NCBI GenBank assembly: GCA_013299045.1 | Contig: JAAFJX010000023.1 | Coordinates: forward strand, 1 to 64,000 | Reading direction: 5' to 3' | Source: Cytophagales bacterium | GTDB lineage: Bacteria; Bacteroidota; Bacteroidia; Cytophagales; Bernardetiaceae | Length of the DNA stretch: 64,000 nucleotides | Part shown: in pieces, positions 22,786 to 28,014 of the stretch | Layout: each line of letters starts with the position of its first letter | Numbering within the stretch: the first letter of the stretch is position 1 | The notes under the pieces: generated by a model | Database searches by the model: none | Told to the model about the DNA's origin: nothing | What the model saw: only the letters and a program-made list of their open reading frames with translations | Position numbers and translations under genes: made by a program

Positions 22786-22868
22786 GGATAAAAAATAGCG
22801 ACAAAAACTCTATCAGTTAAGCCTCAAAGAGGAATGCAGCTTTGGCTTTTCAAAAAAACAAAACCACA

Positions 22869-25307
22869 TTACCCCTTCAAAAAACCGTATTCATAAACCT
22901 TTACTTCTATTTTTTTGGCTAAAACCTTCAACGTTTCGCGCAAATCTGCAACAAGTTTTGTATAAATTTCATCTTCGCTTTTTGTATTCATTCTACCTTT
23001 TTCGCCTCTGCCCTGAAAATACTCTCGTATATCATACAAACTTGCATTGGCATTGGGTTTTTTATTGAGAGAAGTATTGATATGGTTGATAGATTTATGG
23101 TAATATTTCCAAAGTTCTCGCCCTGCATCAAATACGATTTTTGCCTCTGCTGAAAATTCAAGTGGCGTAGTGCGTGCTTTGGTTACATTCCCAAAAACAT
23201 CACTTGTAGTGTTTTGTTTGAGTTTTCCTTTGATAAAATCTGTCATAAAACTACTTTCAAAACGCTCCTGTGCATTTATTTCTTGTTCGGTAAATGGAAT
23301 AAAATGATTTGTGCCATCTTTTGCTGTAATTCTATTTTTATCTTGAAAAAGTGCAAAAGATAAACAATCATTCTGAAATTCAAAGTCTGTTTTCCAATTA
23401 TCATTTGGAAATAAAAATTGGTCGTTATGATTAATCCAAGTATGTTCAAAAATTTTTCTTGCGGTAATATAAATAGAGGCTATTATTAAATTTTGTTGGT
23501 TTATTGCAAAAAAAATACCATGTCTATTACCTTTTTCATTTAGAATAGCAATAAGGTTATTATTCTGAAAATCAGGGGCATCAGCCATTAAAAAGCCAAT
23601 TTGGGTATCATTTTTATCTTTTTTAAATAAATTTAACCAATCATTTATTTTACCTTTTTCATTATCGTATGAATAGAATGATTTTTTTTCTAAAAATATT
23701 GCATTTGAATTATATACATCTACTTTATTTTCTTCGATTTTTTCTTTTATTTTGGTATCCCAAATAAAAAAACCAATTGGAAAACTACCATTCACATTGT
23801 CAAAAGTATCAGCAGGAACAATAAAGCATTTTTTTAATTTTGCTAAAAAATTATTTCTAAAAACTTTTGAATTTGTGCCATTTAACAATTTTAATGTAGA
23901 AAATTGTCCAATTATACAATCAGGAATTTCAAAATAAATTCTTACTAAAAATTGGGCAAATAATTCAGCACTAACTTTTTCTAATTTTGGGGAATATTTG
24001 GTATGAATTTTTGAAACTTGTACATTACTTCGTGTTATACTTGTTTTTCCATTGCTTTCTGCATAAGGCGGATTGATATAAATAACTAATTTTTTTCTTT
24101 TTTCAGGGTCATCAATAATATTTTTTAAATTTTTGGGTAATTTATCAAAACTATCATTTAAGAAATCAAACTGAAAAACTTGATTTTCCCAAAGATTAGC
24201 CCCATTTCTGATGCGGTCGTGCATCACATCTACATCTTGTTTATCCAATGTAGAAGCAAAAATATTATTTTTATTCGTCAATCCTGCTAATAAATTTCCT
24301 GTTCCTGCGGCACAATCCCAAATATAATATTCGTCCTGCCAATCTTCGCCTAAGGTATCAGCGAGGTATTTTTGAGAAAGTTCTACCCAAATTTGAGGTG
24401 TAAAAAAACTCCCTTTTCGCTCACGCACATCTTGCGGAACGAGCAAGTCCCTACGCCCGATGATATAATCCCAATATTCTTCTTTGGGTGGTCTTTCGTA
24501 TATATTCCAAAATTGATTGTGTGCTTTTTGTTTGTCAGTAAAACCTGTAGAGGTCGTAACAAACATACCCGATTCGTTCAATTTTCTATCTAAATGATAA
24601 GTATCGGTTTTAAGCAATACAAAAAGTTTATCTTTGAGGGTTGTATTTTCTTCAGAAAGCAAATCAGCGAGATAAAAATCGCCATCAATAATTCCTGCTT
24701 TCTTGGCAAGTTCCCAATCTGCTTGTATAGTTGGTTTTACGGCAGTAAGCCATTTGTTATAAATGACCATAAAATTATTTTTATCAATTCGAGTTTTATT
24801 GATGCCATATTTGCCAGCAATAAAATTATGTTTGATAAAATAATGTAGTTCTTTATCATCTTTTCCAAAATAAAAAATCAAGGCTTGTTCATCAAGCGTA
24901 TGTTGCACTTTGGTATGAATAAGTTTAAATTCTCGTGTGTCGTGGTTAGAAGGCGTAACTTTCCAATTAAAATCATTTTGATAAAAAACATCACTGATTT
25001 CACTATAAGGCACAAAAGCAATTTTTTCAGCATCAAAAGCACCCAAAAACGCAGGCGGTAGGCTTTTGTCAAAAGTACGAGCCTTGCCAATGGTAAGGAT
25101 AAGTTGGCTAATAGATTTTTGAATATCTGCCATACCTTTTTTTGCTTCTGCCCACAAAAGAGGCGGAATATCAAGTTCAGGTTTTGAATTGTGCAAAGAC
25201 ACACAAAAATCCACATTTCCTATTATTTGGGTACAATCCAATAACCAAAAATAATCTTGTGCGACTTTATTTTTAAGTTCTTCTTCTCTGATGTTGGCGT
25301 AGTGCAT
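22869..25307 (-). CDS. Single-chain (type IIG-like) restriction-modification enzyme, downstream copy
   Basis: 812 residues. Motif I of N6-adenine methylases (DCAAGTGNLL, ~residue 331) and the catalytic NPPY (~413) are present. The N-terminus (1-80) contains D33, the ExK pair E54/K56 in WAEAKKG and Q68, which fits a PD-(D/E)xK nuclease and suggests cleavage and methylation in one chain. The segment ~418-640 is unlike the upstream copy; the C-terminal ~170 residues again match it, apart from a few changes. In gamma-type methylases the target recognition domain follows NPPY, so the two copies probably recognise different sites. The gene is AT-rich compared with its neighbours, which suggests transfer. 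Methylase-only activity is the alternative. Confidence 0.78.
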   Translation of the reverse strand: MHYANIREEELKNKVAQDYFWLLDCTQIIGNVDFCVSLHNSKPELDIPPLLWAEAKKGMADIQKSISQLILTIGKARTFDKSLPPAFLGAFDAEKIAFVPYSEISDVFYQNDFNWKVTPSNHDTREFKLIHTKVQHTLDEQALIFYFGKDDKELHYFIKHNFIAGKYGINKTRIDKNNFMVIYNKWLTAVKPTIQADWELAKKAGIIDGDFYLADLLSEENTTLKDKLFVLLKTDTYHLDRKLNESGMFVTTSTGFTDKQKAHNQFWNIYERPPKEEYWDYIIGRRDLLVPQDVRERKGSFFTPQIWVELSQKYLADTLGEDWQDEYYIWDCAAGTGNLLAGLTNKNNIFASTLDKQDVDVMHDRIRNGANLWENQVFQFDFLNDSFDKLPKNLKNIIDDPEKRKKLVIYINPPYAESNGKTSITRSNVQVSKIHTKYSPKLEKVSAELFAQFLVRIYFEIPDCIIGQFSTLKLLNGTNSKVFRNNFLAKLKKCFIVPADTFDNVNGSFPIGFFIWDTKIKEKIEENKVDVYNSNAIFLEKKSFYSYDNEKGKINDWLNLFKKDKNDTQIGFLMADAPDFQNNNLIAILNEKGNRHGIFFAINQQNLIIASIYITARKIFEHTWINHNDQFLFPNDNWKTDFEFQNDCLSFALFQDKNRITAKDGTNHFIPFTEQEINAQERFESSFMTDFIKGKLKQNTTSDVFGNVTKARTTPLEFSAEAKIVFDAGRELWKYYHKSINHINTSLNKKPNANASLYDIREYFQGRGEKGRMNTKSEDEIYTKLVADLRETLKVLAKKIEVKVYEYGFLKG

Positions 25308-25397
25308 AACGTGCGTCTTGAATATTCGGCAAATTTATAATAATATACAAGAATAGTATTTTTATAGCGGATTATTTTTCAAAAAAACAAAACCACA
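25308..25397 (-). promoter_or_regulatory. Duplicated upstream region of the restriction-modification gene
   Basis: The ~65 bases before the ATG are the same as those before the upstream copy (27873-27945). On the minus strand a -7-like TAAATTTG lies at 25337-25330; no good -33 box is visible. The stretch TTTTTCAAAAAAACAAAACC also occurs at the end of each unit and probably marks the duplication joint. Confidence 0.55.
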
Positions 25398-27872
25398 TTA
25401 CCCCTTCAAAAAACCGTATTCATAAACCTTTACTTCTATTTTTTTGGCTAAAACCTTCAATGTTTCGCGCAAATCTGCAACAAGTTTTGTATAAATTTCA
25501 TCTTCGCTTTTTGTATTCATTCTACCTTTTTCGCCTCTGCCCTGAAAATACTCTCGTATATCATACAAACTTGCATTGGCATTGGGTTTTTTATTGAGAG
25601 AAGTATTGATATGGTTGATAGATTTATGGTAATATTTCCAAAGTTCTCGCCCTGCATCAAATACGGCGGTTGCCTCTGCTGAAAATTCAAGTGGCGTAGT
25701 ACCTGCTTTGGTTACATTCCCAAAAACATCACTTGTAGTATTTTGTTTGAGTTTTCCTTTGATAAAATCTGTCATAAAACTACTTTCAAAACGCTCTTGT
25801 GCATTTATTTCTTGTTCGGTAAATGGTATAAAATGATTTGTACCACCTTTTGTAGTGATTTTGTTTTGTCCGTGAAATAACGCAAAAGCCAAACAATCAT
25901 TCTGAAATTCAAAATCTTTTTCCCAACCATTATTTGGGAATAAAAATTGGTCTTGATTATTTATCCAAGTGTGTTCAATACATTGTCTTACCGTTAAATA
26001 TATTGACATTATAAAAAGATTGTTTTTTGTTATATTTGTCAATTTATGTTGTTTTACATCACTTTCTGTTGGGCTTGAAGTTATATAAACACCACTTTGT
26101 TGTTGCATATCAACGCCTGGTAATATTAAATAAGCAATAATATTATTTCCTTTATCATAAAACTTTCGTAACCAACCACTTATGAAATCATCTTTACCAA
26201 AAGAATGAATAGGTTTTATTGATTCTTTCCAAAAAATATTATTATTGATGTTATGCAAAATTATATCAGCATCTATTTTAATAATATCTTTTTTATTTGA
26301 TAAGTCCCAAATTGAAAAACAAATTGGAAATTTACCATTAACATTATCAAAAGAATCTGCTTTGCAAATAAAACCTCTTTTATATTCAGCCTTAAAATAT
26401 TGGCGAAATTTAAAAAAATTTTGAGAATTTATTAATTTTAATGTGGAAAATGTGGCTAATATTGAATCTGAAATATCTTTATAAACACGTAAAAAAAATT
26501 GTGCAAATAATTCACGAGTTGCTGTACCAACAATATTATTAAAATTGTCATAAACTTTGCTTGTTGTTGAAACACTTGTTTTGTGTTCTCCTTTTGCTAT
26601 AATAGTAGTTCTATTACCATGTTCTGCATAAGGCGGATTGATATAAATGACTAATTTTTTTCTTTTTTCGGGGTCATCAATAATTTTTTTTAAACTTTTG
26701 GGTAATTTATCAAAACTATCATTTAAGAAATCAAACTGAAAAACTTGATTTTCCCAAAGATTAGCCCCATTTCTGATGCGGTCGTGCATCACATCTACAT
26801 CTTGTTTATCCAATGTAGAAGCAAAAATATTATTTTTATTCGTCAATCCTGCTAATAAATTTCCTGTTCCTGCGGCACAATCCCAAATATAATATTCGTC
26901 CTGCCAATCTTCGCCTAAGGTATCAGCGAGGTATTTTTGAGAAAGTTCTACCCAAATTTGAGGTGTAAAAAAACTCCCTTTTCGCTCACGCACATCTTGC
27001 GGAACGAGCAAGTCCCTACGCCCGATGATATAATCCCAATATTCTTCTTTGGGTGGTCTTTCGTATATATTCCAAAATTGATTGTGTGCTTTTTGTTTGT
27101 CAGTAAAACCTGTAGAGGTCGTAACAAACATACCCGATTCGTTCAATTTTCTATCTAAATGATAAGTATCGGTTTTAAGCAATACAAAAAGTTTATCTTT
27201 GAGGGTTGTATTTTCTTCAGAAAGCAAATCAGCGAGATAAAAATCGCCATCAATAATTCCTGCTTTCTTGGCAAGTTCCCAATCTGCTTGTATAGTTGGT
27301 TTTACGGCAGTAAGCCATTTGTTATAAATGACCATAAAATTATTTTTATCAATTCGAGTTTTATTGATGCCATATTTGCCAGCAATAAAATTATGTTTGA
27401 TAAAATAATGTAGTTCTTTATCATCTTTTCCAAAATAAAAAATCAAGGCTTGTTCATCAAGCGTATGTTGCACTTTGGTATGAATAAGTTTAAATTCTCG
27501 TGTGTCGTGGTTAGAAGGCGTAACTTTCCAATTAAAATCATTTTGATAAAAAACATCACTGATTTCACTATAAGGCACAAAAGCAATTTTTTCAGCATCA
27601 AAAGCACCCAAAAACGCAGGCGGTAGGCTTTTGTCAAAAGTACGAGCCTTGCCAATGGTAAGGATAAGTTGGCTAATAGATTTTTGAATATCTGCCATAC
27701 CTTTTTTTGCTTCTGCCCACAAAAGAGGCGGAATATCAAGTTCAGGTTTTGAATTGTGCAAAGACACACAAAAATCCACATTTCCTATTATTTGGGTACA
27801 ATCCAATAACCAAAAATAATCTTGTGCGACTTTATTTTTAAGTTCTTCTTCTCTGATGTTGGCGTAGTGCAT
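25398..27872 (-). CDS. Single-chain (type IIG-like) restriction-modification enzyme, upstream copy
   Basis: 824 residues. The first ~385 residues are the same as in the downstream copy, including D33, E54/K56, Q68 and the DCAAGTGNLL motif, and the last ~170 are nearly the same. After NPPYAE the two proteins separate: this one reads HGNRTTIIAKGEHKT and keeps only scattered matches (FSTLKL, FDNVNG, EHTWIN, QFLFPN) until ~residue 640. The pattern is that of a recent tandem duplication with the specificity segment replaced or conserved from another allele. It is transcribed first on the minus strand, with a 90-base gap to its copy. Confidence 0.78.
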   Translation of the reverse strand: MHYANIREEELKNKVAQDYFWLLDCTQIIGNVDFCVSLHNSKPELDIPPLLWAEAKKGMADIQKSISQLILTIGKARTFDKSLPPAFLGAFDAEKIAFVPYSEISDVFYQNDFNWKVTPSNHDTREFKLIHTKVQHTLDEQALIFYFGKDDKELHYFIKHNFIAGKYGINKTRIDKNNFMVIYNKWLTAVKPTIQADWELAKKAGIIDGDFYLADLLSEENTTLKDKLFVLLKTDTYHLDRKLNESGMFVTTSTGFTDKQKAHNQFWNIYERPPKEEYWDYIIGRRDLLVPQDVRERKGSFFTPQIWVELSQKYLADTLGEDWQDEYYIWDCAAGTGNLLAGLTNKNNIFASTLDKQDVDVMHDRIRNGANLWENQVFQFDFLNDSFDKLPKSLKKIIDDPEKRKKLVIYINPPYAEHGNRTTIIAKGEHKTSVSTTSKVYDNFNNIVGTATRELFAQFFLRVYKDISDSILATFSTLKLINSQNFFKFRQYFKAEYKRGFICKADSFDNVNGKFPICFSIWDLSNKKDIIKIDADIILHNINNNIFWKESIKPIHSFGKDDFISGWLRKFYDKGNNIIAYLILPGVDMQQQSGVYITSSPTESDVKQHKLTNITKNNLFIMSIYLTVRQCIEHTWINNQDQFLFPNNGWEKDFEFQNDCLAFALFHGQNKITTKGGTNHFIPFTEQEINAQERFESSFMTDFIKGKLKQNTTSDVFGNVTKAGTTPLEFSAEATAVFDAGRELWKYYHKSINHINTSLNKKPNANASLYDIREYFQGRGEKGRMNTKSEDEIYTKLVADLRETLKVLAKKIEVKVYEYGFLKG

Positions 27873-27944
27873 AACGTGCGTCTTGAATATTCGGCAAATT
27901 TATAATAATATACAAGAATAGTATTTTTATAGCGGATTATTTTT

Positions 27945-27981
27945 CAAAAAACAAAACCCCTAAGACCAGAAATGTCTTAGG
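27945..27981 (-). terminator. Terminator of the T9SS PKD protein gene
   Basis: On the minus strand, CCTAAGAC-ATTTCTG-GTCTTAGG is a perfect 8-base stem, followed by GGTTTTGTTTTTTG. It lies between the T9SS gene stop and the duplicated restriction-modification unit. Confidence 0.8.
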
Positions 27982-28014
27982 AGTTTTGGCCTTTTTATAA
28001 TAATCTACTTGTTA

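What the first reader, a model, noticed from the sequence alone, without database searches (positions are those of the whole stretch)
22855..27945. Tandem restriction-modification genes that are identical at both ends but exchanged in the specificity region
The two genes share ~385 identical N-terminal residues and ~170 near-identical C-terminal residues, while the part just after NPPY (~418-640) is largely unrelated. The upstream regions are also the same. This is what a duplicated single-chain enzyme with two different recognition segments would look like, giving one cell two specificities, or a recombination-driven specificity switch through the long identical arms.
Basis: partly seen in the sequence, partly recalled or inferred. 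Interest (0 to 1): 0.75.

Follow-up and report, generated by a model that had tools for sequence, protein, structure and literature searches.

The report
Twin restriction enzymes with swapped targeting parts
Two neighbouring genes encode the same single-protein restriction-and-modification enzyme but with different DNA-targeting segments, so the cell most likely cuts foreign DNA and marks its own at two sites instead of one; similar duplicated-and-exchanged pairs recur in related bacteria, which makes this family a natural experiment in how defence enzymes change target.

Summary
Gene A (25398-27872, minus strand, 824 aa) and gene B (22869-25307, minus strand, 812 aa) are tandem copies. They are identical over 1,256 nt (79 nt of leader plus 392 codons), then diverge abruptly right after NPPYAE (95% to 36% DNA identity). 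From about codon 626 they converge again (98% protein identity over residues 701-824). Both are single-chain PD-(D/E)XK nuclease plus gamma-class N6-adenine methyltransferase proteins, Type IIG/IIL-like. The family is in neither Pfam nor NCBIfam.

Across 95 full-length homologs the same segment (417-625) is hypervariable, and its similarity is uncoupled from that of the arms (r about 0): an exchangeable specificity cassette. About 13 other loci in relatives hold tandem copies; four repeat the sharp border at residue 416/417, and several carry a second copy lacking the nuclease.

Best reading: recent tandem duplication at a 17-19-nt flanking repeat, combined with cassette exchange, giving two co-resident, self-protecting specificities. 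A programmed switch is not supported: the arms are direct repeats, no recombinase is nearby, no strain comparison was available. TaqII/TaqIII is an experimental precedent. New variant of a known kind; recognition motifs and activity remain untested.

The parts
25398..27872 (-). Gene A: 824-aa predicted single-chain restriction-modification enzyme (N-terminal PD-(D/E)XK nuclease, linker, gamma-class N6-adenine MTase, C-terminal domain)
22869..25307 (-). Gene B: 812-aa tandem paralog of gene A, downstream on the same strand
26696..27951 (-). 5' identical arm, copy A (79-nt leader + codons 1-392): nuclease, linker, MTase motifs X and I
   Evidence: zero mismatches to copy B
24131..25386 (-). 5' identical arm, copy B
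   Evidence: zero mismatches to copy A
25998..26624 (-). Exchanged segment of A (residues 417-625): second half of the MTase fold plus a small segment inferred to carry target recognition; nearest relatives are cassettes of L027, L040, L022, not the arm relatives
23469..24059 (-). Exchanged segment of B (equivalent residues); nearest relatives are cassettes of L062 and L086
25376..25997 (-). 3' arm, copy A (residues 626-824 plus stop and 3' flank); near-identical to B from about 25840 on
22847..23468 (-). 3' arm, copy B
27941..27958 (-). Short direct repeat GGTTTTGTTTTTTGAAAA upstream of A, inferred crossover site of the tandem duplication
25376..25394 (-). Same repeat at the A/B junction (GGTTTTGTTTTTTTGAAAA): 3' flank of A fused to the leader of B
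22847..22865 (-). Same repeat after the stop of B
27952..27988 (-). Terminator-like 15-pair hairpin + T tract upstream of A, separating it from the 28015-31386 gene; not present between A and B
27895..27902 (-). Candidate Bacteroidota -7 box TAAATTTG, 22 nt before the ATG of A; the same box precedes B at 25330-25337
   Evidence: weak, since this motif occurs about 0.86 times per kb per strand in the window

Best explanation
A and B are two active or recently active single-chain restriction-modification enzymes (Type IIG/IIL-like) that share nuclease, linker, cofactor-binding half and C-terminal scaffold but carry different recognition cassettes (residues 417-625). Because one chain uses one recognition region for cutting and for methylating, replacing the cassette changes both activities at once, so each copy protects its own site and the cell holds two specificities (inferred from the family's architecture, not measured). 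The pair arose by tandem duplication of a gene flanked by a 17-19-nt repeat, combined with recombinational import of a different cassette through the conserved arms (or by unequal crossover between two alleles already differing in the cassette). Shown: gene anatomy, border positions, family-wide independence of the cassette, recurrent tandem pairs. Inferred: that the cassette sets specificity, that both copies are active, the order of events.
For: 1,256-nt exact 5' arm and 98-99% 3' arm around a segment at family-background identity. The junction has exactly the structure expected of a tandem duplication between short flanking repeats. Nuclease residues D33, E54, K56 and Q68 and MTase NPPY are invariant and kept in both copies; PADLOC PD_DExK hit E=4e-4. 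The model (pLDDT 82) matches DrdV Z 18.4, LlaGI 17.4, BpuSI 15.5, MmeI 15.4, CamA and M.TaqI about 15. In 95 homologs, pairwise identities of the segments 417-445, 446-525 and 526-625 correlate with each other (r 0.37-0.57) and not with the N-terminal or MTase arms (r 0.00-0.06). The arm tree explains only 13-17% of the cassette's tree signal, versus 60-76% between arms; the AU test rejects arm trees for the cassette (with a caveat on replicate number). Independent tandem pairs repeat the border: L106 96 to 40% at residue 416/417 and 50 to 99% at 625/626; L061, L065 and L142 alike. Cassettes of nuclease-less copies are found in full-length enzymes elsewhere, for example L110 versus L093 at 89%. 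Precedent: TaqII/TaqIII, 93.4% identical, differing mainly in the TRD, with two m6A motifs by SMRT (PMC5587805).
Against: No methylome, enzymatic or expression data. The C-terminal part (560-824) folds confidently (pLDDT 90) but has no recognisable relative among solved structures, so recognition by this region is assigned by position and variability, not by fold. One copy could be silent. The genome is in 79 contigs, so a 1.25-kb exact repeat is a place where assembly can go wrong; the order of the two cassettes in particular could be exchanged without notice.
Confidence: 0.8

Rival explanations
1. A recombination-driven specificity switch: the long identical arms let the locus convert between alternative single or double arrangements often enough to act as phase variation of restriction and methylation.
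For: Long exact arms are an efficient substrate for RecA-dependent exchange. Arms are more alike than background within most arrays while cassettes are not, so conversion or re-duplication does go on over evolutionary time. Duplicated distinct specificity genes switch Type I systems (PMC7394358 and PMC6265443, seen as titles and abstracts).
Against: The arms are direct repeats, so a crossover deletes one unit instead of toggling. No recombinase, inverted copy or silent cassette store is adjacent or found in the genome. There are no within-species data.
Confidence: 0.12
2. The two proteins serve one asymmetric site: each methylates one strand of the same recognition sequence, so together they make one complete protection system.
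For: Some Type IIG families need a second MTase for the other strand (stated in PMC3936762). Nuclease-less second copies, overlapping or abutting the end of the full gene and starting at residue about 295, occur in L061, L065, L106, L110, L142 and, incomplete, L094.
Against: Here both copies keep the nuclease. Cassette types of the nuclease-less partners do not resemble each other (31-43%) and are also used by full-length enzymes elsewhere, so there is no fixed pairing. Lone copies are common in the family.
Confidence: 0.08
3. Assembly artefact: two cassette alleles of a mixed culture or population were joined in tandem by the assembler.
For: Contigs of related genomes break or carry N gaps inside this gene, which shows that it confounds assembly. 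The genome is fragmented (79 contigs).
Against: The junction is a specific fusion of A's 3' flank with B's leader. The 3' arms and both outer flanks differ between copies. Intact tandem copies with non-identical arms, which assemble without trouble, occur at about a dozen other loci.
Confidence: 0.05
4. Redundant duplication in decay: one copy is already inactive and the divergent middle is relaxed drift.
For: A decayed third N-terminal remnant exists in the genome (C32:58102-58521, three stops).
Against: Both frames are open and all invariant residues are kept. The middle of each copy resembles cassettes of intact genes in other genomes at 63-71%, and drift cannot give 40% DNA identity beside a zero-mismatch arm.
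Confidence: 0.03

Closest known systems
TaqII / TaqIII of Thermus aquaticus (Type IIC/IIL; PMC5587805)
   Same: Two paralogous single-chain nuclease-methyltransferase enzymes in one strain; differences concentrated in the recognition region; two single-strand m6A motifs shown by SMRT.
   Different: Those genes lie on two plasmids, are about 1,100 aa and 93.4% identical overall. Here the genes are tandem on one contig, 812-824 aa, the 5' arms are identical and the cassette is only about 20-50% identical, including the second half of the MTase fold.
MmeI / DrdV (Type IIL) and BpuSI (Type IIG)
   Same: Order nuclease, helical linker, gamma-class MTase, recognition part in one chain; DrdV is the best structural match (Z 18.4), MmeI and BpuSI about 15.
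   Different: No detectable sequence similarity to any solved structure; the C-terminal part alone finds no structural relative.
TRD domain movement in Helicobacter pylori (PMC3077401, PMC3983042)
   Same: Recognition domains move between alleles and loci by recombination in conserved flanks.
   Different: There, mainly Type I and Type IIG S subunits with two TRDs per protein and short flanking repeats, plus Type III mod genes. Here the exchange lies within a one-chain enzyme, so nuclease and methylase change together.
Type I systems with duplicated hsdS / pneumococcal tvr locus (PMC7394358, PMC6265443)
   Same: Several specificity variants side by side at one locus, with shared arms.
   Different: Separate S subunits, and switching reported there; here whole enzymes are duplicated in direct orientation without a recombinase.
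H. pylori CjeFV-family Type IIG enzymes (HP1517, JHP1409; PMC3936762)
   Same: Single-chain Type IIG enzymes whose close homologs recognise related but different 5-bp sites.
   Different: No sequence of these was compared here; a homolog of the present family (48% identity) is on H. pylori plasmid pUM157 but broken into three frames.

Membership tests
Type IIG/IIL single-chain restriction-modification enzyme | PD-(D/E)XK nuclease and adenine MTase in one polypeptide | tested here: met
   PADLOC PD_DExK E=4e-4; invariant D33, E54, K56, Q68 and NPPY 412-415; DSSP places D33 and E54-K56 on or beside consecutive strands with Q68 on the next helix. By sequence and model only.
Type IIG/IIL single-chain restriction-modification enzyme | Gamma-class order: motif X, motif I, NPPY, recognition part C-terminal | tested here: met
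   FTP 302-304, DCAAGTGN 331-338, NPPY 412-415; whole-model matches to DrdV, MmeI, BpuSI, M.TaqI
Type IIG/IIL single-chain restriction-modification enzyme | C-terminal TRD of known fold | tested here: inconclusive
   Residues 560-824 modelled alone (pLDDT 90) have no convincing match (best Z 3.3)
Type IIG/IIL single-chain restriction-modification enzyme | Cleavage outside an asymmetric site; m6A on one strand | not testable with these tools
   Needs a methylome and a cleavage assay
Type ISP / Type I / Type III (ATP-dependent) | Helicase/translocase domain in the same chain or in an adjacent gene | tested here: not met
   Nuclease, MTase and C-terminal parts fill the chain, with no Pfam helicase; the neighbouring genes (Aldedh, START_2, PKD, peptidyl-tRNA hydrolase, DPRP) include none
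BREX (PglX/BrxX) | BREX gene cluster around the methyltransferase | tested here: not met
   Neighbouring genes are unrelated; the structural resemblance to BrxX (Z 14.8) is that of gamma MTases in general
Recombination-switched specificity locus | Inverted or silent alternative cassettes, or a dedicated recombinase at the locus | tested here: not met
   No inverted repeats, no recombinase, only one decayed remnant elsewhere in the genome
Recombination-switched specificity locus | Alternative arrangements within one species or culture | not testable with these tools
   One genome per species is held
TRD exchange between alleles (domain movement) | Recognition segment phylogeny independent of flanking-arm phylogeny | tested here: met

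The most novel reading that the evidence does not exclude
A Bacteroidota-centred restriction family in which tandem arrays work as a specificity-generating device: conserved arms ending exactly at NPPYAE and restarting near residue 626 act as standing recombination joints, a shared pool of cassettes circulates across genera and between full enzymes and nuclease-less methylases, and arrays are kept because copies differ in target.
Probability: 0.3. Interest if true: 0.7.

Novelty: new variant of a known kind. Interest (0 to 1): 0.5.

Why it matters
Single-chain restriction-modification enzymes are the simplest case in which cutting and protecting change together, so natural cassette exchanges with mapped borders show directly which segment sets the target. 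The window pair is a natural near-isogenic swap: same nuclease, same cofactor half, near-identical end, different middle. Two methylation motifs from A and B would map specificity to residues 417-625 in one experiment, in a large family that has no curated model. The recurrent arrays also suggest that counts of restriction genes in fragmented genomes are too low.

Tried and rejected
Pfam, NCBIfam and PHROGs gave no family. The profile search of solved structures gave only Rab GTPases and one unrelated protein at E of 0.01 or worse; rejected as chance, since that region overlaps the MTase fold. Apparent 815-1,025-aa frames in G003 turned out to be runs of N, i.e. assembly gaps; not a new architecture. 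AU tests reject every exchange of trees, even between arms, and used fewer replicates than advised, so I rely on the tip-permutation comparison. The first version of the AU run failed for a technical reason. Synteny with the one same-genus genome: the two flanking genes lie on different contigs there, so no empty site could be read. A foreign-DNA reading of the low GC of the cassettes (24% versus 35% in the arms) was dropped, because the cassette is AT-richer than its own arm in 91 of 92 homologs. Phage records: no match; IMG/VR: six contigs only. Rfam: nothing at the locus. Foldseek on the C-terminal part alone found nothing; absence there does not show a new fold.

Full report
What is there. 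Two open frames lie head to tail on the minus strand: A (25398-27872, 824 aa, transcribed first) and B (22869-25307, 812 aa). Base-by-base alignment gives a 1,256-nt exact arm (79 nt upstream plus 392 codons), four isolated differences over the next 74 nt, a break directly after the NPPYAE motif, and a return to near identity towards the 3' end: one mismatch in the last 268 nt of the coding sequence, and 98% protein identity over residues 701-824. In DNA blocks the identity runs 100, 100, 100, 100, 100, 95, then 36, 65, 63, 40, 43, then 81, 85, 96, 99%.

How the duplication looks. The sequence GGTTTTGTTTTTT(T)GAAAA occurs three times: before A (27941-27958, the tail of a strong terminator-like hairpin at 27952-27988), at the A/B junction (25376-25394) and after B (22847-22865). 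The junction joins A's 3' flank (with seven T, like that of B) to the leader of B. That is what an unequal crossover between a short repeat before the gene and one after it would leave. The hairpin itself is not duplicated, so B may be read through from A as well as from its own identical leader. The box TAAATTTG in both leaders is only a candidate promoter element.

What the proteins are. No Pfam or NCBIfam model matches, although 413 stretches encoding relatives turned up in one scan of 84,980 species genomes. In 55 aligned homologs D33, E54, K56 and Q68 (a PD-(D/E)XK nuclease with its Q helix) and NPPY 412-415 are invariant, and FTP 302-304 and DCAAGTGN 331-338 are invariant or nearly so. 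PADLOC recognises the nuclease weakly (E=4e-4). The AlphaFold model of A (mean pLDDT 82) matches DrdV (Z 18.4), LlaGI (17.4), BpuSI (15.5), MmeI (15.4), CamA and M.TaqI (about 15), which are nuclease-MTase single chains or gamma-class adenine MTases. This supports Type IIG/IIL-like architecture. The C-terminal 265 residues alone, modelled with pLDDT 90, find no relative in the PDB, so the recognition part is assigned by position and variability only.

The exchanged segment is the family's variable cassette. Over the distinct full-length homologs, columns 417-445 and 526-625 are the least conserved stretches, while 1-416 is strongly conserved. In 95 sequences, pairwise identities of 417-445, 446-525 and 526-625 correlate with each other (r 0.37, 0.41, 0.57) but not with the N-terminal or MTase arms (r 0.00-0.06), whereas the N arm correlates with the MTase arm (0.48) and the C-terminal arm (0.34). 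For pairs whose 526-625 segment is at least 60% identical, the median N-arm identity is 64%, the same as background (63%). On the cassette data the arm tree recovers only 13-17% of the likelihood gap between random and own tree; arm-to-arm values are 60-76%. So the segment travels as one unit and largely independently of the rest. A's cassette is nearest to those of L027, L040 and L022 and B's to L062 and L086, while the arms of both are nearest to L023.

It recurs. Tandem copies occur at about 13 other loci among the contigs fetched (repeats of the same contig and gap artefacts removed by hand). In L106, L061, L065 and L142 the 5' border falls at the same residue: DNA identity drops from 92-100% to 40-48% at 416/417. 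In L106 the 3' border is sharp as well (50 to 99% at 625/626). L096 shows the reverse, near-identical cassettes with more diverged N arms. In six loci a copy lacks the nuclease and starts at residue about 295; in L110 its cassette is 89% identical to that of a full-length enzyme elsewhere (L093), so the same cassette pool serves restriction enzymes and nuclease-less methylases. Several related contigs end or carry N gaps inside the gene, so multi-copy arrays are probably under-counted (inference).

How it most likely works. Each copy recognises its own site with its own cassette, methylates it, and cuts DNA in which it is unmethylated. Since one chain uses one recognition region for both activities, a cassette exchange changes both together and is not self-destructive; this follows from knowledge of single-chain Type IIG/IIL enzymes, not from data here. 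The closest experimental parallel is TaqII/TaqIII, where two paralogs differing mainly in the TRD give two single-strand m6A motifs in one strain (PMC5587805). The order of events is undecided between duplication followed by cassette import and unequal crossover of two alleles that already differed. The zero-mismatch arm says that duplication, or the last arm conversion, was recent.

What is not supported. A switch would need alternative arrangements in one population, or machinery. The copies are direct repeats, no inverted repeat or recombinase is present, and only a decayed N-terminal remnant lies elsewhere in the genome. Deletion or conversion through the arms is possible and could be looked for in deep long-read data.

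Limits. One genome per species, no reads, no methylome. The assembly is in 79 contigs, and the order of the two cassettes could be exchanged without trace in a short-read assembly. Numbers of tandem loci depend on which contigs were long enough to show neighbours: 9 of 55 loci with at least 2.5 kb on both sides had more than one family ORF, and some of these nine (for example L027, a gene split by a stop) are not true tandems.

Verdict. Real and well explained: a recent, clean example of cassette exchange between tandem single-chain restriction-modification genes, in a family without a curated model. The kind is known; the tandem arrangement with borders at NPPY, its recurrence and the sharing of cassettes with nuclease-less copies make it a new variant.

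Noticed in passing
window 19510, 22750, 33973, 34846, 36341, 36588, 40741: Dispersed short repeat TAGTCGTCCCTTAAAAA(G), part of a unit of about 33 nt: 7 copies in the window (0.01 expected) and 164 copies in the genome with at most one mismatch (82 per strand, control 0). Some copies lie just after gene ends. One copy lies about 100 nt after gene B and two lie near the decayed third copy on C32.
   Followed up: partly
L061 7038-8603, L065 8424-10031, L106 4316-5884, L110 5591-7177, L142 4053-5606, L094 4754-5797: Nuclease-less second copies starting at residue about 295, most overlapping the end of an upstream full-length gene; a recurrent restriction-modification plus methylase-only arrangement of unknown role.
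   Followed up: partly
L102 3953-6903 (Helicobacter pylori plasmid pUM157): A 48% identical homolog, broken into three frames and unannotated, far from Bacteroidota; it points to transfer by plasmid.
   Followed up: no
L108 and L109 (genome G003), L137, L139: Scaffold gaps of N or contig ends falling inside this gene, suggesting collapsed multi-copy arrays in draft genomes.
   Followed up: partly
L151-L156 (IMG/VR contigs): Six contigs labelled viral carry full-length homologs (49-60% identity); not checked whether they are true viruses or host flanks.
   Followed up: no
G000:C32:58102-58521 (L003/L103): Decayed N-terminal remnant of a third family member in the same genome, 59% identical over residues 1-133, with three stops.
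   Followed up: partly
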